Assembly (NCBI GenBank): GCA_947455215.1
Contig: CANGNA010000013.1
Coordinates: 16,069 to 80,068, forward strand
DNA from: Chitinophagaceae bacterium
GTDB taxonomy: Bacteria; Bacteroidota; Bacteroidia; Chitinophagales; Chitinophagaceae
Direction of reading: 5' to 3'
DNA: 64,000 nucleotides
Shown: positions 50,585 to 51,321 of the stretch, one piece after another
Numbering within the stretch: the first letter of the stretch is position 1
Layout of the letters: each line of letters opens with the position of its first letter
The notes under the pieces: generated by a model
The model's database searches: none
Told to the model about the DNA's origin: nothing
What the model saw: only the letters and a program-made list of their open reading frames with translations
Made by a program: the position numbers and the translations under genes

Positions 50585-50902
50585 TTATGCCGCGAGGCTG
50601 GTGATCTTTTTTACCATTGTTTCTACAATGACGGTTGCGTATTTATCATGCTTCAAGTCCATCATCTGCCACATCTGGTAAAAGGCAACGGCCTCGGTGC
50701 CGGATAGCGACAGGGTATAATCGTCCTGCATGCGCTTACTCATCAGCTTCAGTTTGTGCTGTAGTTCCTGCATGTATTCGCGCAGCAGGAAATGATGATC
50801 GTTGAGCGGTTTGAAGCTGCTGAGCATATCCTTGCATATATCTATTAGGGCCTCTACGCGCAGATGGCTGATGCGTACCCTGATGTGTCTTTTCTGAGCC
50901 AT
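50585..50902 (-). CDS. hypothetical protein of early module
   Basis: 105 aa; overlaps start region of DnaA-IV gene; operonic. Confidence 0.55.
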   Translation of the reverse strand: MAQKRHIRVRISHLRVEALIDICKDMLSSFKPLNDHHFLLREYMQELQHKLKLMSKRMQDDYTLSLSGTEAVAFYQMWQMMDLKHDKYATVIVETMVKKITSLAA

Positions 50903-51321
50903 TGGTTTACTGATTTTAAAACTGTTTCGTATTTGTGAGAGAATCGCTGGTCTTCCATTTCCAACAGCATGTTGGCGCGGGCCAAACCATTCATTACCGA
51001 CGTATGATCAACACCGCCGAAGTACATGGATATCTGGTGCAGTGTAATAGTGGGGAAGTAGCTGCGCAGGAAGTAAGCGGCCAGGAAACGAAGCTCCACA
51101 ATATCGCGTTCGCGGGAACGGATCGTGTACATCCTCATGTCCATGCCTAATGCGGCGGCTATTACGGTCATCATTTTTTCCGGGGTACGTGCCAGGTGGC
51201 TGTCGCGATATGCTACAAGATTTACCCGTAGCCCCGTCAGCTTTTCTATGTTGCGCTCGGCTTGCCTGGTAATGCTTTTGGCGCTGCATACTTTGTTGCG
51301 TTTGATCGGTGCTATATTCAT
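50854..51321 (-). CDS. stand-alone DnaA domain IV (Bac_DnaA_C)-like HTH protein
   Basis: 155 aa; SRERDIVELRFLAAYFLRSYFPTITLHQISMYFGGVDHTSVMNGLARANMLL matches DnaA domain IV signature (FGGRDHTTV-like) without an AAA+ domain. Confidence 0.8.
   Translation of the reverse strand: MNIAPIKRNKVCSAKSITRQAERNIEKLTGLRVNLVAYRDSHLARTPEKMMTVIAAALGMDMRMYTIRSRERDIVELRFLAAYFLRSYFPTITLHQISMYFGGVDHTSVMNGLARANMLLEMEDQRFSHKYETVLKSVNQWLRKDTSGYASAICA

What the first reader, a model, noticed from the sequence alone, without database searches (positions are those of the whole stretch)
50854..51321. Stand-alone DnaA-domain-IV protein in the early module, with DnaA-box-like sites in the structural-operon elements 30 kb away
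The 155-aa protein carries the DnaA domain IV recognition segment (HQISMYFGGVDHTSVMNG) but no AAA+ domain. The left element contains a perfect consensus DnaA box, TTATCCACA (minus strand, 16238-16246); the right element has ATATCCACA (20722-20730, one change). Established knowledge, to my recollection: activators of alphaproteobacterial gene transfer agents (GafA in Rhodobacter, GafY in Caulobacter) carry a DnaA-domain-IV-like DNA-binding region. Inference: this protein is the late-gene activator linking the split modules, a parallel to GTA control in an unrelated phylum.
Basis: partly seen in the sequence, partly recalled or inferred. Interest (0 to 1): 0.86.

Follow-up and report, generated by a model that had tools for sequence, protein, structure and literature searches.

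The report
DnaA-like switch of a domesticated phage
A bacterium related to Flavipsychrobacter carries a tamed, split-up Mu-like virus whose parts seem to be switched on together by a small protein that borrowed the DNA-reading domain of the replication starter DnaA, and this protein and its matching DNA site recur in related species.

Summary
The 155-aa protein is a stand-alone DnaA domain IV (Bac_DnaA_C above cutoff; AlphaFold model closest to DnaA domain IV bound to DNA), and both boxes are where stated. Within the window the boxes alone are no more than chance; comparison makes the case.

The genome is Flavipsychrobacter (Chitinophagaceae). It carries a Mu-like element without MuA, split into an early module (LexA/CI-like repressor, MuB, DnaA-C, a 105-aa protein, Gam) and two divergent late operons. 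The early module recurs in 26 related genomes, with dN/dS at most 0.15 where computed.

The box sits exactly 12 nt upstream of palindromic operators in 35 promoters of 9 genomes, although operator sequences differ between genomes. Genome-wide, box-N12-ATGRTR occurs 47 times in six Flavipsychrobacter genomes and at control level in 95 others. It also precedes dispersed small-terminase-like genes. Two free Bacteroidota Mu-like phages have similar operators but no box there.

Most likely DnaA-C binds the box and activates the late regulon, as GafA/GafY do for alphaproteobacterial gene transfer agents. Binding and activation are untested. About half of DnaA-C genomes examined lack the box, and host DnaA could read it. 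No particle has been shown.

The parts
50854..51321 (-). DnaA-C: 155-aa stand-alone DnaA-domain-IV protein (proposed late-regulon activator)
   Evidence: PF08299 41.5 bits; AF2 model pLDDT 92-96 over the domain, best PDB match 1j1v
50983..51180 (-). coding stretch of the DnaA domain IV (residues 48-113), with R70, R72, R78, D105, H106 conserved
50585..50902 (-). 105-aa conserved partner (p105); two predicted beta-alpha-alpha repeats, function unknown, candidate operator binder
   Evidence: fold search without a significant match
50029..50541 (-). Mu Gam-like end-protection protein
   Evidence: PF07352 87 bits, phrog_491
51866..52747 (-). MuB-like AAA ATPase, retained without MuA
   Evidence: PF13401, phrog_296 DNA transposition protein
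52857..53684 (+). HTH + S24 (LexA/CI-like) repressor, divergent from the early operon; conserved start at 52887
   Evidence: PF01381, PF00717; Ala-Gly and Ser/Lys invariant in 12 genomes
52858..52866 (-). TTTTCCACA in the early control region, conserved in 15 of 26 genomes (one more has TTATCCACA); repressor operator or autoregulatory box
16131..16263 (-). left late-promoter element (inverted-repeat arm), driving the leftward operon
16238..16246 (-). DnaA box TTATCCACA of the left element
20705..20837 (+). right late-promoter element (inverted-repeat arm), driving the rightward operon
20722..20730 (+). DnaA box ATATCCACA of the right element
20743..20793 (+). palindromic ATGRT...AYCAT operators of the right element
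   Evidence: sequence reading
20801..20832 (+). core promoter: TTTG (-33 like) at 20801-20804 and TCATCTTTG (-7 like) at 20824-20832
   Evidence: Bacteroidota promoter consensus from general knowledge
15688..16131 (-). small terminase (HTH DNA-binding protein)
   Evidence: phrog_4151; start ATG at 16131 by reading
14137..15648 (-). large terminase
   Evidence: phrog_38 6e-67
12845..13282 (-). Mu gp36-like head-tail adaptor
   Evidence: PF07030, phrog_195
11309..12424 (-). Mu-type portal
   Evidence: PF06074 209 bits
20858..21844 (+). Mu I-like head maturation protease
   Evidence: PF10123, phrog_328
21993..22907 (+). major capsid protein
   Evidence: PF11651, phrog_267
23695..24213 (+). CHAP-domain (lytic) protein
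   Evidence: PF05257
24255..25439 (+). DUF2586 contractile tail sheath
   Evidence: PF10758 169 bits, phrog_907
25474..32823 (+). remaining tail and baseplate genes of the right late operon

Best explanation
The locus is a host-maintained (domesticated) relic of a Mu-like transposable phage. It lost its MuA transposase and was split into an early control module and two divergent late operons. A LexA/CI-type repressor keeps the early operon off. On its inactivation, probably by RecA after DNA damage, the early operon makes MuB, DnaA-C, p105 and Gam. DnaA-C uses a DnaA domain IV to bind the box TTATCCACA that stands 12 nt upstream of palindromic operators in every regulon promoter of this type. 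From there it helps recruit RNA polymerase to the promoter just downstream. This turns on the terminase/portal operon, the protease/capsid/tail operon and several scattered genes for small-terminase-like proteins. Shown by sequence: the domain, the box, the fixed spacing, the regulon, co-occurrence, loss of MuA and purifying selection. Inferred: binding, sign (activation), the inducing signal, and that particles package host DNA.
For: Domain: PF08299 above cutoff and no AAA+; AF2 model best matches 1j1v, DnaA domain IV with DnaA-box DNA (TMt 0.83), and 3pvp; profile matches DnaA chains in the PDB. E. coli contact residues R399, R401, R407, D433 and H434 map to R70, R72, R78, D105 and H106; four are invariant and R70 nearly so in 26 homologues. 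Box: invariant 12-nt spacing to the operator in 35 elements of 9 genomes with several different operator sequences; when the gap was left free (8-20), all 23 hits had the same gap. Regulon: 8, 14, 8, 9, 6 and 2 elements in G000, G003, G004, G005, G010, G006 against 17 in the other 95 genomes, close to the 15 of the reversed control. Co-occurrence of DnaA-C with late genes: 9/2/3/47. Early module conserved in 26 genomes without MuA beside it; full-length MuA only in genomes with a separate prophage. dN/dS at most 0.15 for early and late module genes where computed. No match in 50,697 phage records, only 3 remote ones in IMG/VR.
Against: No binding or expression data. Genomes G007, G009, G016, G105, G106, G113 and G116 carry DnaA-C but show no such box at the late promoters examined, and G101 and G104 have it only upstream of the small terminase. 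T435 is replaced by A in G004, G005 and G010 although their boxes are perfect. G003 has 14 elements but no DnaA-C was found (its assembly also lacks TerL and portal). Some DnaA-C genomes show no portal, TerL or protease (G053, G111, G115). Six of the eight G000 boxes are ATATCCACA.
Confidence: 0.65

Rival explanations
1. The box is read by the host's own DnaA, coupling late expression to the replication state; DnaA-C acts elsewhere or competes with DnaA at the box.
For: TTATCCACA is the universal DnaA consensus (general knowledge), the genome has its own DnaA, and G003 has 14 elements without a detected DnaA-C.
Against: Elements are confined to genomes of this system and absent from MuA-bearing prophages of the same bacteria and from the two free phages looked at. 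A dedicated domain IV protein sits in the control operon of the same system and keeps the contact residues. G003 is incomplete for the system.
Confidence: 0.15
2. DnaA-C serves replication or transposition (recruiting replication proteins to phage ends) rather than transcription, and the box is a late-operon site for another factor.
For: It lies between MuB and Gam, both transposition-linked in Mu. A DnaA_C protein follows Gam in a MuA-bearing prophage without boxes at its late promoters.
Against: The transposase is gone while DnaA-C stays under purifying selection. Two genomes keep repressor and DnaA-C while no MuB, p105 or Gam was found beside them (L118, L120).
Confidence: 0.1
3. DnaA-C binds the box but represses the late promoters in uninduced cells.
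For: Sequence does not give the sign of regulation (reading).
Against: The box lies about 80 nt upstream of the -33 element, a usual place for an activator. DnaA-C is in an operon that a separate repressor should keep off.
Confidence: 0.07
4. Decaying prophage remnant; the boxes are chance host DnaA sites.
For: Box matches in the window as a whole are at chance level.
Against: Fixed spacing, multi-genome regulon, purifying selection.
Confidence: 0.03

Closest known systems
GafA (Rhodobacter capsulatus GTA) and GafY/GafZ (Caulobacter GTA)
   Same: A DnaA-domain-IV-like DNA-binding activator (GafA; GafY is homologous to its N-terminal part), encoded apart from the structural cluster, acts at the promoter upstream of the terminase and at other loci (PMC9638019, PMC11150451, PMC6363796).
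   Different: GafA also has a sigma-like C-terminal part; the binding elements of GafA are not mapped to the nucleotide in the papers read. Here the domain stands alone, sits in a Mu-like early operon, and the predicted site is a classical DnaA box at a fixed distance from palindromes. The host phylum is Bacteroidota.
Mu Mor/C late-gene activation
   Same: Early-operon product turns on late genes in a Mu-like element (general knowledge).
   Different: No Mor/C family match among the early proteins scanned; the candidate activator is DnaA-type.
Hankyphage (Bacteroides phage p00/jmh72_hp) and Elizabethkingia phage TCUEAP3
   Same: Closest described phages by large terminase (43%), with the same divergent small-terminase/protease layout and ATGAT-type palindromes between them.
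   Different: Phages with MuA; no DnaA box in that region and no Bac_DnaA_C among the early proteins scanned.

Membership tests
Bac_DnaA_C / DnaA domain IV proteins | match to PF08299 above the curated cutoff | tested here: met
   41.5 bits against 31.5
Bac_DnaA_C / DnaA domain IV proteins | DnaA domain IV fold with base-contact residues | tested here: met
   1j1v best Foldseek match, E 2.4e-3, prob 1.00; D105, H106, R72, R78 invariant, R70 nearly; T435 position A in three genomes
Bac_DnaA_C / DnaA domain IV proteins | binds TTATCCACA | not testable with these tools
   needs EMSA; only co-occurrence and spacing seen
DnaA initiator | AAA+ domain | tested here: not met
Gene transfer agent (domesticated phage) | structural and packaging genes of a tailed phage kept by vertical descent under purifying selection | tested here: met
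Gene transfer agent (domesticated phage) | lacks self-mobilisation, genes dispersed over the genome | tested here: met
   MuA absent from the module; modules on different contigs in G004 and G007
Gene transfer agent (domesticated phage) | particles that package and transfer host DNA | not testable with these tools
   no expression or particle data
GafA/GafY family | sequence homology beyond the DnaA-like domain | not tested
   no GafA or GafY sequence was compared here; homologues found are all Bac_DnaA_C stand-alone proteins
Active Mu-like prophage | MuA transposase in the element | tested here: not met

The most novel reading that the evidence does not exclude
A gene transfer agent of Bacteroidota made from a transposable phage, in which one DnaA-box regulon drives the particle genes together with a set of dispersed small-terminase-like genes at fixed chromosomal places, so that each such gene could mark its own locus as a packaging start (programmed, multi-site export of host DNA).
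Probability: 0.2. Interest if true: 0.92.

Novelty: new variant of a known kind. Interest (0 to 1): 0.76.

Why it matters
GafA/GafY-type control by a DnaA-like domain is known to me only from Alphaproteobacteria. An independent system in Bacteroidota, built on a different (Mu-like) phage and with a readable DnaA-box code, would suggest that recruiting the DnaA domain is a recurrent route to taming phages. It also gives a ready search pattern (box, 12 nt, ATGRTR) and a cultured species, Flavipsychrobacter stenotrophus, in which regulation, particle formation and the role of the dispersed terminase-like genes can be tested directly.

Tried and rejected
Chance host box: rejected by spacing and regulon counts. 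Ordinary active prophage: rejected, no MuA in the module while true MuA prophages lie elsewhere in some of the same genomes. Mobile repeat (MITE-like) reading of the eight G000 elements: unlikely, since the element is followed by a -33/-7 pair and in most cases by late or terminase-like genes, and several orphan loci are at matching places in sister species. p105 as a ribbon-helix-helix protein: secondary structure fits loosely but the fold search gave nothing significant. TTTTCCACA in the early promoter as an autoregulatory box: cannot be separated from a repressor palindrome. Literature searches found no described gene transfer agent in this family and no DnaA-type late activator of a Mu-like element. 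Downstream products of three G000 elements (L041, L044, L046) were not identified.

Full report
Observation. The ORF at 50854-51321 (-) is as described. Pfam gives a single hit, Bac_DnaA_C, above its curated cutoff. The only other PF08299 match in the 4.2-Mb genome is chromosomal DnaA. The two boxes are at the stated coordinates. What is not chance is that both boxes lie at the same position of a 133-nt inverted repeat whose core is identical over about 50 nt, one copy upstream of each of two divergent phage operons.

Surroundings. The left operon (-) encodes a small-terminase-like HTH protein, large terminase, gp36-like adaptor and Mu-type portal; the right operon (+) encodes a Mu I-like protease, capsid protein, CHAP protein, DUF2586 sheath and baseplate genes. 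A 1368-aa secreted-type host gene lies between them. The early module (50-54 kb) has a divergent HTH-S24 repressor, a MuB-like ATPase, DnaA-C, a 105-aa protein (p105) and Mu Gam. No MuA was found there. Carbamoyl-phosphate synthase and MreB genes lie between the modules.

Relatives. The genome belongs to the genus of Flavipsychrobacter stenotrophus RB1R16, family Chitinophagaceae. The early module, in the same order where intact, is found in 26 further genomes, and MuA homologues were not found within the flanks of any of them. Full-length MuA occurs only in genomes that also hold a second, separate Mu-like cluster. The modules lie on different contigs in G004 and G007 and about 30 kb apart in the window and in G005. 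NG86 dN/dS is 0.09, 0.05 and 0.15 for DnaA-C and at most 0.13 for the other early genes, TerL and protease where dS was finite. DnaA-C has no match in 50,697 phage records and only three remote ones in IMG/VR. This is the profile of a vertically kept, domesticated element.

The element. The 27-nt core occurs 8 times in the window's genome, 0 in the reversed control. In relatives the palindromic part changes (GCATGATGC, ATGGTGGTAC, ATGGTGTGCC, ATGATAGTGC, ATGATACTAC), but the box stays. In 35 elements of 9 genomes the box is followed by exactly 12 nt and then the operator, and in most a TTTG near -33 and a CTTTG near -7 follow. When the gap was free to vary (8-20), all 23 hits had the same length. 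The pattern WTATCCACA-N12-ATGRTR gives 8, 14, 8, 9, 6 and 2 hits in G000, G003, G004, G005, G010 and G006; the other 95 genomes give 17 in all, against 15 for the reversed control. Outside the genus, G103 and G104 have the element upstream of the terminase genes and G101 has the box there with a changed operator.

The regulon. Besides the two late operons, elements in G004, G005 and G010 precede dispersed genes for HTH proteins of about 200 and 300 aa that match small-terminase families (Terminase_5, DUF1804; phrog_4151), often at matching chromosomal places in sister species. In the window's genome three of the six orphan elements precede such genes, one of them short (86 aa); the other three have no clear product.

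The protein. The AlphaFold model has a confident DnaA domain IV (pLDDT 92-96) after an N-terminal helix; the closest PDB entries are DnaA domain IV bound to box DNA, 1j1v and 3pvp. By alignment, E. coli R399, R401, R407, D433 and H434 correspond to R70, R72, R78, D105 and H106; in 26 homologues the last four are invariant and R70 nearly so. T435 is A in three genomes.

Origin of the parts. In the free Mu-like phages Hankyphage jmh72_hp and Elizabethkingia phage TCUEAP3 the same intergenic region holds ATGAT-type palindromes but no DnaA box, and no Bac_DnaA_C was found among the early proteins scanned. Prophages with MuA in the same bacteria also lack the box there, although one (G007:C5) has a Bac_DnaA_C protein after Gam. 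The operators therefore look ancestral and the box an addition of the domesticated line (inference).

Mechanism. The S24 repressor keeps an Ala-Gly pair and the Ser/Lys dyad in all 12 sequences aligned, so release by RecA-stimulated self-cleavage is likely (inference from the family). The early operon would then supply DnaA-C, which binds the box and, with whatever binds the palindromes (p105 is one candidate), recruits RNA polymerase. GafA in Rhodobacter and GafY in Caulobacter act in a comparable way (PMC9638019, PMC11150451). This is a likeness in working, not shown membership in that family.

Limits. No binding, expression or particle data exist here. About half of the DnaA-C genomes examined have no such box at the late promoters. 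G003 has 14 elements without a detected DnaA-C, in an assembly that also lacks TerL and portal. Counts are not independent across a genus. Host DnaA remains a possible reader of the box.

Noticed in passing
L185-L200 (G004, G005, G010); L042, L043, L045 (window genome): Dispersed stand-alone small-terminase-like HTH genes under the same late promoter, often at matching loci in sister species.
   Followed up: partly
L041, L042, L043, L044 downstream of the element: Shared non-coding stretch with repeated CGGCAGAAA motifs after the promoter; no product identified at L041 and L044.
   Followed up: no
window 49761-49805, 51411-51455, 51542-51586 (+): Three Rfam Acido-Lenti-1 (RF01687) matches, two of them in the gap between the MuB-like gene and DnaA-C.
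   Followed up: no
L092:4117-4662 (-), prophage at G007:C5: A MuA-bearing Mu-like prophage with its own Bac_DnaA_C protein (181 aa, 41.3 bits) after Gam.
   Followed up: partly
G000:C31 (L094, L095): A second Mu-like prophage with MuA in the window's own genome; its terminase/protease intergenic region has ATCATGC-like repeats but no DnaA box.
   Followed up: partly
window 52857-53684: LexA/CI-like repressor is among the most conserved genes of the module across the family.
   Followed up: yes
L118 (G053), L120 (G115): Early modules reduced to repressor, DnaA-C and a DUF4406 (deoxyribosyltransferase-like) gene, with no MuB, p105 or Gam found beside them; no portal, TerL or protease was found in G053 or G115.
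   Followed up: partly
window 16452-20558 and 45781-49425: Two large NHL/DUF7619 proteins with a T9SS sorting tail flank or interrupt the phage modules.
   Followed up: no
G103:C224, G104:C13, G107:C836, G109:C33: Large terminase matches broken near residue 107-112 of the query within one open frame, suggesting a short in-frame insertion.
   Followed up: no
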